A stretch of DNA of 64,000 nucleotides from Cavenderia fasciculata. Taxonomy: Eukaryota > Evosea > Eumycetozoa > Acytosteliales > Cavenderiaceae. Below, in pieces: positions 7,537 to 63,967 of this stretch. Under the pieces are notes generated by a model. It did no database searches, was not told where the DNA came from, and saw nothing but the letters and a program-made list of their open reading frames with translations. A program made the position numbers and the translations under genes. Every line of letters starts with the position of its first letter. The stretch's first letter is position 1. Where the stretch lies: contig NW_004457734.1 of the NCBI RefSeq assembly GCF_000203815.1, forward strand, positions 1,309,233 to 1,373,232. The letters are read 5' to 3'.

Positions 7537-10500
7537 ATGAACATTGTAAGTATAGATTAGTTGAATGATTGAAGGATAGATATATTGATACTTACTTTTG
7601 ATTTCTCATGATTATAGAAACAAGATTTATTTAAAAGTGTAATAGGAGATAAAGGAATTAGATTGAATATATTCGAATGGGTACATTGGATAACAATTAG
7701 AGTCACTGATAGACCATTGACATGTTACACTAGACAATCTGTTAAACGGTACAATGATATAATCAACGTGACATTGGCCAAAGATGATGATGAAAACTTG
7801 GTTCGACTGGATACTAATCAATTGGCAGAGTTGATTAAATACAAGATACAAAGAAATGAGTACTCATTTCCAATCACTCAAGATACTTTAATACAAATAT
7901 GTTCCATTTCAACAATGGATGAATCAATATTTAGATTGTTTTTAAATAGAAATGGTCATCTCTTTACAAAATATAATCTAGAGGAAATCATTCAAACGGT
8001 TTGTGATAATAGTGATACTTCATCATCATCATCATCATCATCGTCATCGACAATAAGAAATGCTCGTATATTATATAACGAGTTTAAAGATATTGGTATA
8101 CAACACTTGGAATCTATAATCATAAAAAAGGAAATGATGATGGATCGAGAACGACATACTCTTGAAATGGTTAATACAATAGATGGCTTTGAATCAATTG
8201 TTTCTTCTTATCATAAGCGTATCAAAGTACCAAGAGAATCAAATCAAGATAACATTTCAAAAGATCTTTTAAATTCAACTTTAAATAGATTATGTAATAA
8301 TAATAATTGTAATAATAGTCAACAAAATAATATTCAATTGATATTTAAAGAAATCAATGAAGTAATAGAAAGAATAATTAAATCTTTATCATCATCATCC
8401 ACTTCAAATTTTAAAAATCCATCATATATTTGGATCAATTTAATTGTATTAAGAGTACTTGGTGACCAAAACAATACAAATAGGTTAGAAATAGTAAAAA
8501 ACATTATAAAGAATAATACAAATAATGAAATAGTGGAATATCTATTCAAATTAGAGAATGAACTGTGTTTGGAGAATTGGGTGTTTGACATATTATGTAA
8601 ACATGGAACTTTTGATCAAGTTGTATTTGGTAGTAAATTAATTGGTACGCTGGAAAAGAAAGCGTCATACAAAGCAATGGATTGGGCAGCAAATAAAGGA
8701 AGGTTGGATGTTGTACAATATTTACTAGATCACCGAAAAGAGCAATGTAGTCAAACTGCAGTACAAGGGAACCCACACTCTGACGTAGTAAGACTCATAC
8801 TACAGTACAAACCGACACTCATGAAATTCGTTACTAGACAGTCAATACTAGTAATGGGTGATATCGATTTCCTTCAAGAGTTGGACGCTGACCAGCTCTT
8901 TGGCAAAGATCAATCCCATTCACTTGAGACACTGGTAATCTCACGAACTGTTGCCAAAGCAGTATTGACAAGACATTCACAACTAGCATCCATCAGGATG
9001 ATCGATTATCTGTTCTTTACCTACACTGAACAATTTCCAGTCTATGATTTCATTTCAGAAGCATGTATGCTCGGACTTGAACAAGTGGTCTATCATTTAC
9101 ACCACATTTATTCAACACACAATAATATGACTATTACACCACACCCAAGTGTCAAGACAACTATATTTGATGATGCATTTCTCTATGGAATGAATCAAAA
9201 TATTGTAGATTTTTTAATAGACAATAGAAAAGAAGGGTTTGGGCCTGAATCTTGGAAGGTTGTTGGTCAGAATGGTACGGTTCAACAATTTGAAATGTTA
9301 AAAAGATGGTCCCTATCACAAGAAAACATGGACATTATGATAACCAATTCAATTCGATATGGAAATATTGACCTTTATCAATATATTAAATCTAATATTG
9401 GTATTGATGAAACAAAATTTAAAGTACAAGATTTAAAATATGCAGCTAGATTATACAAGGATAAAATGGTTCTTTTGGGTGCTTCACATTTATCTCTTCA
9501 AGATTTAAATGATTTATTATTCCATTTATTATGTTTTGGTAGAACTGATATAGCTAGTCAAATATATCAACAAATTATAGTCAATAATAATAATAATAAT
9601 AATAATAATCATATTGTTGGATTAACAGAAAACCAAATCAATTATTTGATTAAAAGGTTTGACCATCAAGTTGTCGATTTTTTGGTTGAAAATAATTTTT
9701 TAAATCAATCTTTTGTAGATAGTCATCGATTTAAATTATGTCATCCAAGTCTATACTATTATCAATCCAAATATTTATCAAAATATTTTTCAAACTTTAA
9801 TAATATTTCTCCAATCATTGATACAATTAATAATAATAATAATAATATAAAATTACAAAATAATATTAAACCAACAACAACAATCAACGATCAAATAATA
9901 ATTTTAAAAGTTTTAAAGAATAGATATTTGTTAAGAAGAATATTTAGATTAAATTCACCAGTTGCTTCTGTCTACAAACAATTCACATTTGATAGTTTAA
10001 TTTCGTACCGACCAAAATTACTATTACTTTTGTTAAAAGCAAACCAAACGTCTGAAATTATAATTAGTAAAGAACAATTGGAAGATTTTTGTTGTAAAAC
10101 AAACGATTTGGAACTATTCAAGTTGGTTTACTCGAGGTTCAGGTCAAGGTTTTCAGATAATTTTCTATTTTCTAAAATGGTATATACAAGACCAAGGAAT
10201 TTAGATGTATTCAAAATATTGGCAAATCAGACAGACCCTGTTTTGGAATATAATGTCCATCAAATAGGGTTTAAATGTTCAGATGCTGCATTGTATCTTT
10301 ACAATCTAAAAAGACTACCAGCAAGTATGGTACATGGACCATTTGGAACTAAATATTTCAACTATTCAAAATCTTTGGAAAAGGATCAATATCTTGAACT
10401 ATTGCAATTGGAAAGAGAAGGATTGGATGAAAGGCAAAGACGTGCAACTTATAATGAAGATACACCTCTAGAGTTTTGGCAATACCATAACGACCAAAAT

Positions 10501-11825: not shown

Positions 11826-13677
11826 TTATTGTTGCTGTTGTTGTTCTTGTTGTCCTTGTTGTACTTGTTGTTCCTCAACAATTGGTTGTTGTTGTTGTTG
11901 TTGAGAATTTGGACCAATAGCATAAATGAATTCTTCAACAGAGAAATCATATTTAACAAAGATTTCACCGGCTCTAGAGATCGAGTAGTAATCGGCAATG
12001 ACGAGGGTGAGGCCATTGAGTTGGAGATTACGAAGCTTTTCAGATTCGTCGTATAATTTTTGGTAGGCTTGATAGACCTTGTCGTAGCCGTGTGTATATA
12101 CAAAAGAGGTAAGGGTGGTCAATTCTTTAAGACCCAATCTAACTTGAACATAGTCACGAAGGGTTTCCATCTTTTCAGACAATTTCAAAACCTCAATAGT
12201 CTTGTCATGTTCATTGTTGATGATATCGATGAATTCATTAAACTCTACACGAGTTGAAATCTTTAATACACCATCCATATCAATATAATATTTGGATTTT
12301 CTTAAATTTGGGCAAATGCCAATTGTTAATCTATTAAATCTCCTACAAAAAATAATAAATAAACAAATAGTTAATATTAAATTCTATTCTTGAGAATGTT
12401 AATTTCTATTTTATCTAATTACATACTTTCCAGTTAATAATTTTGTAATTTGATTTTTGTTCTTGATTAAAACATTTTTAGAGAAATCTAAACAGAGGTC
12501 CATTTGATCGTGATTATTTAAATAGTGGTTTGGATCGTCTGTTGGATCATCGTGGAACATCCAATTGATAGAACGAACCTTGAGCAACTTGGTGAGCTCC
12601 TTTGAATGAGTGTCAAACTCTTTACGTTGGGTGATGTATTTTTCGACACGCTTTGCGTTTTCGTCACGCTCCACCTTTACCTGATCGGCCAACTCCTTGA
12701 GGTCGAGACGGTTGAGATAGCTAGCCCAAGTCTCTGAAGAGCTACGATCGAGATAGATGATTGGGTCGTTGGAGGCGTAATTGATTTCACTGTGGTTGAG
12801 GTTAAAAGCGAGGGAGGTAAACGACTTGTCCTTGCGTTGTGCCTCGGTGAGTGAGTCTCTCCAGGCAACATAGACATCTGCAAACTCTTGAAGAGCAAGA
12901 TAGTTTTCTTGGAAAGAGTAGAGCGAGTCGATTGGGTTGACAGTCATTTGGACTTGCACCGATAGTTCTCTTCTCACCTTTTTGAGCATCATCTCCAAAT
13001 CTCTAGATTGCTTGAATGAATCGTCACCAATTTGAACGGCAAAGTGACGATTGTCCAACAAAAAGTCTTTGATCGATCCGTTGCTACGTGGTTGGATAAA
13101 GCTGTCGACTTGTTGGATTTCAGTCAAGAAACGAGTTGCCAAATTACAGTAACCAAACAACTTTGACAATTGGTCGGGCACGTGATTTGGGTTTCTACAG
13201 TTCTCTATCATTTCAATATCGACACGTTTCAATACGTCCTTGCCCTCTTCCAATTCATCTGGAATAAAGAATGACAATGCATGTGGAATTTGTTGAGTAT
13301 TTGGATCGGGTACTGGTCTTCTCTTGAATGCATCAATAATACCCATAATAATCTTCATATTATGTGAGTTTACTTTCTACAAACAAACAAAAAAGATAAG
13401 AATAGGTATGAGTCAGTTGTAACAATCTTTGTCCTCTATCTTTTTTTTTTGTTTATACCTTTTCCTCTGGATGAGCAGATAAAGTATCAGGATGAATCTT
13501 TAGATAGAATTGTTTGAGGATATTCTTTAACTTTGGTAATTCATTCTTTTCTCTATCGATCGTGGTAGAGTAGTGACGAACAACGGTTTGTAATTGTGAT
13601 CTACTGCTGCTGAGTGTTGCAAATGAACTAGTAGCAGCTTTACTACCAATACTATACTTTAATATTGATTTAAACAT
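11826..13677 (-). CDS. TCAIM-like mitochondrial protein (DUF4460/DUF4461 architecture)
   Basis: Three exons: 13677-13459, 13376-12427 and 12342-11826. Introns are 13458-13377 (GTATAA...TTGTAG) and 12426-12343 (GTATGT...TTGTAG). The product has 561 residues. Residues 1-45 are rich in Ser and Arg and lack acidic residues until VRHYSTTIDRE, a typical mitochondrial targeting sequence. The segment LKNILKQFYLKIHPDTLSAH with a following HPEEK resembles the J-domain-like DUF4460 region of animal TCAIM (T-cell activation inhibitor, mitochondrial). The remainder corresponds to the long DUF4461 part. The C-terminus ends in a Gln-rich tail. Animal TCAIM is mitochondrial; its molecular activity is not clear, so only the family is claimed. 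The 3' end lies 32 bp from the convergent ankyrin-like gene. Confidence 0.75.
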
Positions 13678-60277: not shown

Positions 60278-61020
60278 TTATTCTTTAGTGACAAATCTTC
60301 TTTTGGCAGGTTGTTTACTATTTCTAGATCTGCCACCACCAAGACTTGAGAGGGTGACACCACCACCAGTAGCACCAGCCAACATACTGTAGGATTGTTT
60401 GATCATTTGGACAAGAGATGGATGGAATTTGTTTCCATCGACATCTCTTGCTTTTTTGCCAAAGCAGATCTTGTTCATAAGGTCATAAGAGTTGTTTGTA
60501 TAGATGTAACGAGTTTGCTTCTCCAACAATGCTTGAGTATATTTGGCTTTATCTTCTTCTGTGTCTTCATCTTCGTCCTCTCCTTCTACGTCTCCTTCCT
60601 CTTCATCTCCTTCTTCGATATCTTCACCACTATCATCTTCTCCTTCTTCAAATTCTTCGTCATCGTCTTCGTCGTCGTCTTCTTCTTCTTGATCGTCACC
60701 CTCTTCAGCGTCATCTTGTTCCTCTTCATCGAGTTCTTGGTCAATAACCTTTTGTTTCTTTACTTCTTCCTTTTCTTTGGTTTCAGTTGAAGTAGTAGTA
60801 GAGGAAGCAGTAGATTTAGAGGAAGATGAATCCTTCTTTTCAGTAGTCTTTCTCTTTAAGTTTGCTACTTGAGCAGCATCGGTCTCTTCATACTCTTCAA
60901 TGGTTGGTTGTCTGTTTTAAATAATAAAACGATTAATCTTCTTTTGGTTCCTCATTTTTGTTCTTTTAAATATTTCACAATCGCAAAAAGAGTGTATTAT
61001 ACTTACTCTTCTCCTGTCAT
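60278..61020 (-). CDS. Acidic nuclear-type protein with basic C-terminus, function unknown
   Basis: Exon 1 is 14 bases (61020-61007), the intron 61006-60912 (GTAAGT...AACAG) and exon 2 60911-60278; 215 residues. The start reads MTGEEQPTIEEYEETDAAQV. Residues 50-125 are almost entirely Glu, Asp and Gly, as in histone chaperones and nucleolar proteins. The C-terminal 80 residues (YIYTNNSYDLMNKICFGKKA, FHPSLVQMIKQSYSML) look folded and end in the basic, nuclear-localisation-like KQPAKRRFVTKE. No family was recognised for that domain. Plus-strand ORFs over the acidic part (Phe/Leu/Ser-rich) are mirror images of the Glu/Asp codons. Chromatin or ribosome-assembly roles are only a guess from composition. 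Confidence 0.72.
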
Positions 61021-61295
61021 CTTTATCTGCTTCTATATATCTGTATCTCTCTCTGTTGCAATGAATGACAATATTAAATTAGTTAACAAACAAATTTTCA
61101 AAATTCCCTCAATTCAAAATTCCCTCCTTTTTTTTTAAATTCTTCACCACCAATATCTCAGCCCTTTATACATTAGAATATTTATACTCTAGAATCTTTA
61201 ACAAGTAACAACAACAACAAAAGTACCTGGATTGAAGAATGACGATTGATTCGCCCAATCAATACCCCATCATCAAACAAACAAAGACCGCTTGA

Positions 61296-61330
61296 ACCCA
61301 CAAAGAAATAATCACATGATCATTATAAAA
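61296..61330 (+). promoter_or_regulatory. DUSE-like ACCCACAAA plus TATA box
   Basis: ACCCACAAA (61296-61304) matches the distal element WCCCAYAA described upstream of many small noncoding RNA genes in D. discoideum. TATAAAA follows at 61324-61330. The pair would suit a small-RNA promoter for the downstream hairpin region. A chance match is possible. Confidence 0.35.
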
Positions 61331-61492
61331 GTAATCAAAGTTCTAGCAAATAAAAATCAAGAGTAGAGTACAAGATAAAATAACAGACAGTTGCATTTAT
61401 AAATACACAAATTCTTTTTGTTATTTCTTAATAAACATCTATAACAGAAATAGGCTTACAGTTTATCAGTTTTGCTAATGGTTGTGACCGCA

Positions 61493-61593
61493 TTCGACTA
61501 TTTATTATGGAAATGATTAGTATTATGTGAGGGATCAACTTCACCAACCAATATATCTTATCATATTAATCATTTCCTTAATAAATAGTCGAA
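61493..61593. ncRNA. Candidate hairpin RNA (31-bp stem, 39-nt loop)
   Basis: The left arm 61493-61523 begins TTCGACTATTTATTATGG. It pairs with the right arm 61563-61593 as 29 Watson-Crick pairs, one G-U pair and one T-T mismatch. The loop is 61524-61562. Total size (about 101 nt) and pairing resemble a microRNA precursor; D. discoideum is known to make microRNAs. It lies in a gene-free stretch (61021-61985). A small palindromic transposon remnant is the main alternative, but I see no target-site duplication. Confidence 0.5.
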
Positions 61594-61756
61594 CCGGACG
61601 AGCTGTGTGCTCTAGTATCATGTATTAAAAAAATCTATAGAGTTTATAAAGTATAATATAAATAAATAATTTTATTTATTTATATCCACAATTGGTATAT
61701 TACAATTTAATTGGAAAGTATTAAGTTTAATAAATTCCACTAGTCGGTATCTGCTA

Positions 61757-61757
61757 C

Positions 61758-61830
<73 letters not shown>

Positions 61831-61831
61831 T
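61757..61831 (+). repeat. (ATT)n microsatellite
   Basis: About 25 ATT units in the gap between the acidic-protein gene and the kinase gene. The rest of 61021-61985 is AT-rich, apart from the hairpin. Confidence 0.9.
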
Positions 61832-61985
61832 TATGATTTGAGAAATGGTTTGTCGGTCGATTAATATTATTATTATTTTGTGTATTGTTGGAAAATTAAT
61901 TTAAGATATAATTCTTAGATTATTATTATTATTATTGTTTCTGGAGGTTAATTCATGATTGGTTATTATTTCTTTTTTCTTTTAA

Positions 61986-63967
61986 TTAAAAGAAACCAGT
62001 ATTATTAAGATTTCTTTGTAAGAACATATTATCAAATAATCCCTTCATTCCTTGTTTGGTTTCAGCTCTTTGGAAGAATGGATGCTAAAATAAAGAAAAA
62101 AAAAATTGATTAGTTGACGAGCCCGATCACTTTGTTGTTCCTTCTTTTTTTTAACATACTCTTAATAACTTATTAGCACTTGATCTTTTTGAAGGATCCA
62201 TTTCAAAACATTGCCAAAGCATATCTTTGAGATCTAATGAACACTTGAATTTAGTGACATCGATACCTTGGGTAGAGTTGTAAAACATGGATTTGAATCG
62301 AGATTCACGATGAGGTGGTTTTCTGTACATCATTTCCAACATGCAGATACCAAAACTCCAAACGTCGGCGGGGAAGCTGTGTGGCTCACCCTTGATCATC
62401 TCGGGTGGCATCCAATAGGGACTGCCGACCATATGGTGACTGGCACCATTTTCGACAGATGCACACAACCCAAAATCAACCAACTTGATGTCACCTTCGA
62501 GCGAGATCATAATGTTGCCACTCTTTATGTCACGATGCACCAATTTGTTTTCGTGTAGGTAAGCAATACCCTTGAGGATCTCCTTTCCAATGTAACCAAT
62601 ATGAGTCTCTTTGAAAATATGACTCGACGATACTGCCTGCTCCAACGTACCACCTTGCATAAACTCTGTGACAATAAACATTTGACCGTCGTGTACCACG
62701 GCACCCTTGAAATCGACAATGTTTGGGTGTCGACATTTGTTTAAAAATCCAATCTCCAAATGTACATTTAATTGTTCCTTGGCATCTCTATAATGTACTA
62801 CTTTAATTGCTACCTTTTTCTTTTCCCATTGTGCTTCAAATACTTTACCATATCCACTAAAATAGAAAAAGAGAGTAAGTCATTTTGTTACATATGTAAT
62901 CTTTTTTACTCTCTCTATTTTAATATACATTACCCTTTACCAATTAATTGACCAAATTTCATTTTCTTTTTAATGTCTGGAATTGTTTTAACCAAGGTAG
63001 ATGCCTTTGTAATGAATTCAGGTTTGACACCAGTTAATGTTCTCTTTCTTGACAACTTTAATTCTAATTTCTTTGTCTTTCTTTCAGTTTCGTCCTTGAT
63101 TTGTTCCAATTCCAATTCTTCGTCTAGTGCAGAGGTTTGGATTTCCTTTTTGGCAGTGGCACCGTCTTTACTATTCTCTGACTTTTCAGATGGGGGACTA
63201 ATATAGGTAATCTTTTGACGTGTAAGGAACTTGATGATAGTCAAAAATACTTTGATGTTCTTTCTGAGTTCGGATACTGGTATCTCTTCATGTTTGAGGT
63301 CATTGATAATGTCGTCTGGGAGATCTTCAAATTTACTGATAAAGAGACGTGGACAACGCTTTCTATTGGCATAACGACGTTTGGCAGTACTACTATTACT
63401 CTTTGACTTTCTAAAGAGACCGACATTCGATGTGGACAAATCTTCCTTTTTCTTTTTCTTTTCCGGTGCACTCTGGAATGGTGAGTCGGTTGGGTTGACA
63501 GGTCCAGCACCATCTAATTGCAAAGAGTTCATACTGTTTGATAATTGGTTGGTCGATGTGGTTGAAGTTGAACCACCGTTTGTGGTTGCTTCATTGCCAG
63601 AATCTCCCAATGACGAGGTCGATGATGTTAGTTTTTCGCGATTTGCCAAGTTGGATGCCGATGTATTTGGTGTGAATGAATCGGCTGTCGTTGCAGTCGT
63701 CGTTGTAGTAGTCGTCGTCGTCGTCGTAGATGTTTTACTATCACTTTCCTGAACCAAGTCATTCGATGACGATGAATTTGATGACGATGATTCTTCTAAA
63801 TCTTGGTTGTTGGATAGTTCTTTTGGAACGGGTGCTGGTGATGAAGGAGATGATGGTGTTGTTACTGTTGATGATACTGTCGATGTAGATGGTGGTGGTG
63901 GTGTTGCTGCTGCTACTGTTGGAGTTGGTTCAGGATTTCTATTTACCAATGGTTGATTGGTTATAAC
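61986..63967 (-). CDS. STE20/PAK-like protein kinase (5' end off the window)
   Basis: Visible exons are 63967-62934, 62856-62160 and 62084-61986, with donors GTAATG and GTATGT. The acceptor at 63969-63968 (TTCTAG) and the absence of an in-frame ATG before it put the start beyond the right edge. The N-terminal 180 residues are Ser/Thr/Pro-rich with a Thr run. A helical block (FISKFEDLPDDIINDLKHEE) follows. The kinase domain runs from FGQLIGKGGYGKVFEAQW, through VAIKVVHY (Lys), HRDIKSGNIMIS (catalytic loop), LVDFGLCA (DFG) and VGSPYWMPPEMI (STE20-type activation segment), to RSSANKLL and a short tail (HPFFQRAETK). All catalytic residues are present. No CRIB domain is seen, so it may belong to the CRIB-less PAK/GCK-like group. 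Substrate unknown. Confidence 0.9.

What the first reader, a model, noticed from the sequence alone, without database searches (positions are those of the whole stretch)
61493..61593. Near-perfect 31-bp hairpin the size of a microRNA precursor
Arms 61493-61523 and 61563-61593 pair with one mismatch and one G-U pair around a 39-nt loop, in an otherwise gene-free AT-rich stretch. A long, barely imperfect stem with a mid-sized loop is what Dicer substrates look like, and D. discoideum has microRNAs. A DUSE-like box with a TATA box lies about 170-200 bp upstream. It may be a new small-RNA gene.
Basis: partly seen in the sequence, partly recalled or inferred. Interest (0 to 1): 0.7.

Follow-up and report, generated by a model that had tools for sequence, protein, structure and literature searches.

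The report
Single-copy hairpin, unproven microRNA precursor
Between two genes of a social amoeba lies one clearly non-random DNA hairpin whose shape fits a microRNA precursor, but no small-RNA data were available to show that it is transcribed or cut, so it stays a plausible candidate for a known kind of gene.

Summary
The hairpin is real. Arms 61493-61523 and 61563-61593 pair with one T-T mismatch and one G-U around a 39-nt loop. In 29.3 Mb of Markov sequence trained on window and genome sample, the best stem had 26 of 31 pairs; this has 29. Searches of the 31-Mb genome found no second copy, and there is no target-site duplication, so a MITE is unlikely. The genome is a dictyostelid, most likely Dictyostelium (Cavenderia) fasciculatum, not D. 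discoideum, with Dicer-like and Piwi-domain genes. Small-RNA sequencing found microRNAs in D. fasciculatum (PMC11014262), but the list is in supplements I could not open. The hairpin passes the structural microRNA criteria tested. The claimed DUSE fails: 16 of 16 Class I RNA genes examined carry exact CCCATAA; here it is CCCATCA. Expression, dicing and conservation could not be tested. Best reading: a candidate young, lineage-specific microRNA gene, more likely read from the + strand (0.45). Main rival: a recent non-functional inverted duplication (0.37).

The parts
61493..61523 (+). 5' arm of the hairpin (possible miR-5p side)
   Evidence: T61508 unpaired against T61578; G61520 wobbles with T61566
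61524..61562 (+). 39-nt loop; on the + strand it holds a small predicted GUGAGG/CUUCAC apical stem
61563..61593 (+). 3' arm of the hairpin (possible miR-3p side)
61493..61593 (+). whole 101-nt candidate precursor; MFE -40.6 kcal/mol at 37 C and -53.9 at 22 C on +, -33.3 and -46.0 on -
61450..61625 (.). local G+C rise around the hairpin (34% over all; left flank 40%, right flank 50%, 34-nt arms 21%) against 29% and 16% in the intergenic sequence on either side; flank pairing beyond the stem is not more than chance
61266..61272 (+).
61324..61329 (+). TATAAA, 169 bases upstream of the hairpin; significance not shown
61415..61420 (+). short T-run followed by G, a weak candidate for the T-rich pri-miRNA start motif of D. 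discoideum
   Evidence: motif fit is inference
60278..61019 (-). left neighbour: acidic-protein gene, two exons by reading, ATG at 61017-61019
61986..63532 (-). right neighbour: protein kinase gene; PF00069 matches the frame at 62151-62681 (Pfam finds nothing in the frame at 62930-63532); last exon by reading ends with the stop codon at 61986-61988; the 5' part may run further right

Best explanation
A candidate young, lineage-specific microRNA gene. Inferred working: an intergenic transcript, more likely of the + strand, folds into the 31-bp hairpin; the Dicer-like nuclease of the microRNA branch (DrnB in D. discoideum) cuts a 21-nt duplex with 2-nt 3' overhangs out of the stem; an Argonaute keeps one strand and uses it to repress transcripts. 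Shown here: the hairpin, its departure from chance, no second copy found, intergenic place, strand asymmetry of the fold, and presence of Dicer-like and Argonaute-type genes. Inferred: transcription, dicing, loading, targets, and the species name.
For: Stem far beyond a Markov null and shuffles. Size 101 nt, within the usual 75-125 nt of amoebozoan precursors (PMC11014262). Energy -0.40 kcal/mol/nt against a criterion of < -0.2, and 1 unpaired base in 12 of the 13 listed + strand 21-nt registers, 2 in the other. Single intergenic locus, as for most dictyostelid microRNAs. The + strand keeps pair 61520/61566 as G-U where the - strand has A-C, and folds better. Three Piwi-domain loci and two tandem RNase III loci. 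Near-perfect duplexes have been suggested to mark new microRNAs, and most amoebozoan microRNAs are species-unique.
Against: No expression data. The 31-nt 5' arm is 77% A+T, no less than the intergenic sequence around (71% left, 84% right), while published dictyostelid microRNAs are considerably less A+T-rich than intergenic DNA. No DUSE and only weak T-runs. No target identified: arm patterns match 36 times outside the hairpin against 33 for reversed controls over five searches, above control in four of the five, and I looked at only two of these places; the longest match lies around a TATA-like box upstream of an HSP90 gene. The published survey reports only 61 microRNAs over all its species, so the prior is modest.
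Confidence: 0.45

Rival explanations
1. A recent inverted duplication (for example by template switching in replication) that makes a near-perfect palindrome with a short spacer and has no function.
For: High arm identity with only two departures; no expression evidence; A+T-rich arms. Another strong inverted repeat (62 nt, 98%) lies in a 200-kb sample of the genome.
Against: No parent sequence for the arms was found elsewhere. The one other strong stem in the sample lies in a stretch that I read as mobile-element-like, not in plain intergenic DNA. The better fold on the + strand is mildly against, but rests on little.
Confidence: 0.37
2. A structured element of a longer transcript: the 3' end of the kinase mRNA, or another non-coding RNA, in which the hairpin acts in stability, 3' processing or termination rather than as a Dicer substrate.
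For: Tandem gene arrangement; hairpin 393 bases past the kinase stop; flanks richer in G+C than the surrounding sequence.
Against: A long A+T-rich stretch with an ATT microsatellite lies between stop codon and hairpin; the - strand, which that mRNA would carry, folds less well; no Rfam family at gathering score in the window, and in 61050-62000 only one match at E up to 5, off the hairpin; flanks do not pair beyond chance.
Confidence: 0.13
3. A MITE or a relic of one, the arms being terminal inverted repeats.
For: Inverted repeat with short spacer in A+T-rich intergenic DNA.
Against: No second copy found; the 15-bp terminal word is not over-represented (9 non-self matches against 16 control matches); no target-site duplication of 2-9 bases. 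The DNA searches skip very common words, so a diverged family could be missed.
Confidence: 0.05

Closest known systems
Dictyostelid microRNA precursors (D. discoideum mir-1176, mir-1177 and others; D. fasciculatum dfa-mir-1220 and others), PMC11014262 and PMC6161686
   Same: Intergenic, usually single locus, hairpin mostly of 75-125 nt, 21-nt duplex possible, Dicer-like and Argonaute-type genes present.
   Different: Those were defined by reads from both arms; here there are none at hand. Their mature sequences are less A+T-rich than intergenic DNA; these arms are not. dfa-mir-1220 is reported from two loci with the same duplex; no second copy of this hairpin was found, so it is probably not that one. 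Whether it is another listed D. fasciculatum microRNA could not be checked.
Young microRNAs with long, near-perfect hairpins (dfi-mir-1190, ppo-mir-1226; PMC11014262)
   Same: No or one mismatch in the duplex region.
   Different: Those precursors exceed 200 nt; this is 101 nt.
Dictyostelid Class I RNAs (Rfam RF01414)
   Different: They span 53-62 bases in the 16 matches, have exact CCCATAA upstream in 16 of 16, and RF01414 does not match this window at gathering score.
MITEs
   Same: Inverted repeat with a short spacer.
   Different: No second copy found, no target-site duplication.

Membership tests
microRNA gene | Precursor folds as a hairpin, below -0.2 kcal/mol/nt, at least 60% of the duplex paired | tested here: met
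   -0.40 kcal/mol/nt at 37 C on +; one unpaired base in 12 of 13 listed + strand registers, two in one; criteria from PMC6161686 section 2.3
microRNA gene | Precursor size usual for Amoebozoa (75-125 nt) | tested here: met
   101 nt; range
microRNA gene | Reads from both arms, 2-nt 3' overhangs, fixed 5' ends | not testable with these tools
   no small-RNA data on hand; supplements could not be opened
microRNA gene | Dependence on the Dicer-like enzyme | not testable with these tools
   only presence of two tandem RNase III loci was shown
microRNA gene | Mature sequence less A+T-rich than intergenic DNA (a trend, not a criterion) | tested here: inconclusive
   5' arm 77% A+T; intergenic 71% left, 84% right; leans against
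microRNA gene | T-rich motif then G at the pri-miRNA start (D. discoideum) | tested here: inconclusive
   only short T-runs followed by G, 61415 and 61470 on +; motif
microRNA gene | Conservation in related species (supporting, not required) | not testable with these tools
   states that the genome has no relatives here
MITE | Many dispersed copies | tested here: not met
   only itself in DNA searches with 146 and 621 bases; arm patterns 36 non-self v 33 control matches
MITE | Target-site duplication | tested here: not met
   no identical flanking words of 2-9 bases
DUSE-driven ncRNA gene (Class I RNA type) | CCCATAA box about 60 nt before the start | tested here: not met
   CCCATAA only at 13342 (+) and 22830 (-) in the window; 16 of 16 Class I upstream regions have the exact word
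Known RNA family (Rfam 15) | Covariance-model match | tested here: not met
   0 matches at gathering score in the window; in 61050-62000 one match at E 0.64, at 61737-61793, off the hairpin

The most novel reading that the evidence does not exclude
A so far unlisted, newborn microRNA gene of D. fasciculatum, so recent that its stem is still nearly perfect and its arms are still as A+T-rich as intergenic DNA, showing how such genes arise from plain intergenic sequence.
Probability: 0.25. Interest if true: 0.5.

Novelty: new member of a known kind. Interest (0 to 1): 0.33.

Why it matters
microRNAs turn over fast in amoebae and almost none are shared between species, so where new ones come from is open. 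A near-perfect hairpin without copies, between two ordinary genes, would be a clean case of birth, and it can be settled with small-RNA libraries that the published survey already describes. If it is silent, it helps to measure how many good hairpins a Dicer-bearing genome leaves unused.

Tried and rejected
MITE: rejected as unlikely (no copies found, no target-site duplication). DUSE promoter: rejected. Known RNA family or tRNA: none (the tRNA scan used the bacterial setting). Larger structured RNA: pairing of the flanks beyond the stem is at chance (z between -0.7 and 0.4 in four tests).

Target or parent gene: the longest outside match, C12:470266, looked at first like a target next to a splice donor, but it lies about 230 bases upstream of the ATG of an HSP90 gene and spans a TATAAATA word (the gene start and TATA reading are mine), so I dropped it. 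C1:1697981 has three mismatches and no feature that I could see. The other outside places, among them four with two mismatches, were not looked at. Arm matches, non-self v reversed control: 2 v 0, 9 v 16, 7 v 3, 12 v 10, 6 v 4; in all 36 v 33, but 27 v 17 without, and some places count in two searches. So a slight excess of near-matches is not excluded.

Diverged relatives by covariance model of this one hairpin: only the hairpin itself, on both strands, in the 264 kb held; three other matches at E 2.4-6.9. Literature: three 17-letter pieces of the arms, in DNA and RNA letters, found no paper; a search with 'dfa-mir' and two species terms lists PMC11014262, house-dust-mite papers and papers on other matters, 15 of 25 shown. 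The supplementary list of D. fasciculatum microRNAs could not be opened (no look-ups allowed), so I do not know whether this hairpin is already there. Papers: PMC11014262 abstract, whole Results, Discussion and one Methods section; PMC6161686 abstract and sections 2.3 and 2.8; PMC11193728 abstract and outline only; PMC7919456, PMC4334915 and PMC5282741 passages only.

Full report
What was checked. The repeat finder gives 34-nt arms at 91% and, among its 16 inverted-repeat pairs of 22 nt or more in the window, none matches better. The RNA fold of 61470-61615 has z -7.25 on the + strand and -6.64 on the - strand, with 0 of 200 shuffles as good.

Chance. I counted ungapped 31-bp stems with loops of about 4-120 nt. 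The window has one stem with 24 or more pairs, this one with 29. A 200-kb sample of the same genome (20 stretches, 19 of them adjoining on contig C1 and one on C12) has five: three of 24, one of 25 and one of 31. The last is part of a 62-nt, 98% inverted repeat between open frames that look like remains of a mobile element; that label is my reading of the translation, not a database result. Sequence simulated by order-3 Markov chains trained on these same stretches, 29,284,000 bases in all, gave 35 stems of 24, six of 25, one of 26 and none above. So base composition does not explain the hairpin. The sample is too small to say how many comparable intergenic hairpins the 31-Mb genome holds: none in 200 kb still allows several hundred (my estimate).

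Where it lies. The window is contig C4:1309233-1373232 of a 30,995,898-base assembly in 21 contigs. The genome holds Dicty_Class_I_RNA (16 matches at E 0.001 or better, two over the gathering score, 60 candidates scored) and CfaA_B_C proteins (33 matches, 31 over cut-off). Neither rings in the 14 control genomes; the controls named are prokaryotes, so that control is weak. That both families are dictyostelid comes from the Rfam name and from recall. Size and A+T content fit D. fasciculatum (31 Mb, 66.2% A+T, 25 supercontigs) better than D. discoideum (34 Mb, 77.6%), P. pallidum (33 Mb, 68.0%, 41 supercontigs) or A. subglobosum (31 Mb, 55.0%, 106 supercontigs) (PMC4334915 Table 1 seen as a passage; window composition). 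The species name is an inference. The hairpin sits between two - strand genes, 474 bases from the ATG of an acidic-protein gene and 393 bases from the stop codon of a protein kinase gene (exon joins are by reading).

Copies. DNA searches of the own genome with 146 and 621 bases find only the place itself, its own reverse complement and, in the second, a nearby small palindrome. Pattern searches of the arms find 36 matches outside the hairpin against 33 for the reversed control patterns, over five searches; four of the five are above their control and one is below. There is no target-site duplication. The DNA searches skip very common words, as their outputs say, so a very A+T-rich diverged family could be missed.

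Promoter. In the upstream regions of all 16 Class I RNA matches the exact word CCCATAA occurs, in 15 at 66-70 bases before the match and in one at 25. The box at 61266 reads CCCATCA, and the window's only two exact CCCATAA words are at 13342 and 22830. TATAAA is at 61324, but such words are common in A+T-rich DNA. Mapped D. discoideum pri-miRNAs are capped transcripts preceded by a T-rich motif and starting with G (PMC6161686, abstract and section 2.8). Here the script found only short T-runs followed by G on the + strand, at 61415 and 61470, and none on the - strand, although a run of seven T on the - strand at 61627-61633 can be seen. The promoter evidence neither helps nor harms.

Machinery and precedent. 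The genome has three Piwi-domain loci and two loci with two RNase III domains each; other Dicer domains were not tested. The published small-RNA survey reports microRNAs in all six dictyostelids studied, D. fasciculatum among them, mostly intergenic and single-locus (some D. fasciculatum ones are antisense to annotated coding regions), with precursors most often of 75-125 nt and almost none shared between species (PMC11014262; abstract, whole Results, Discussion and the methods section on miRNA identification read).

Fit to microRNA criteria. Energy is -0.40 kcal/mol per nt at 37 C (+ strand); 12 of 13 listed 21-nt registers with 2-nt overhangs have one unpaired base. The + strand folds better than the - strand (-53.9 against -46.0 kcal/mol at 22 C), partly because 61520/61566 is G-U on + and A-C on -. 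That fits a + transcript but rests on one site and on the loop. Against it, the arms are as A+T-rich as the surroundings, whereas published dictyostelid microRNAs are less so. Flank pairing below the stem is at chance. The longest outside near-match to the arms lies upstream of an HSP90 gene around a TATA-like word and is not a credible target; the other near-matches were, but for one, not looked at.

Verdict. A real, non-random hairpin without a second copy found, with the structure of a microRNA precursor, in a genome whose species makes microRNAs if the species inference is right. The key evidence, small-RNA reads, was not available. I put 0.45 on a microRNA gene, 0.37 on a non-functional inverted duplication, 0.13 on another RNA element and 0.05 on a MITE relic.

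Noticed in passing
L036:9454-9515 and 9596-9657 (contig C1, about 279454-279657): A 62-nt inverted repeat, 98% complementary, 80-nt spacer, between open frames that look like a decayed mobile element (my reading of the translation). A longer hairpin than the one in the finding and a possible siRNA source.
   Followed up: partly
window 61656-61685: Perfect 14-bp A+T palindrome with a 2-nt spacer, 62 bases right of the hairpin; on the - strand it holds AATAAA words and may belong to the 3' end of the kinase gene.
   Followed up: no
16 Class I RNA places (e.g. C14:1681052-1681106 and 1681309-1681365; C7:1517662-1517720 and 1517932-1517988): Ten of the 16 Class I RNA matches form five divergent pairs about 200-240 bases apart, each member with its own exact CCCATAA box 67-70 bases upstream.
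   Followed up: partly
window, about 61755-61830: ATT trinucleotide microsatellite between the hairpin and the end of the kinase gene.
   Followed up: no
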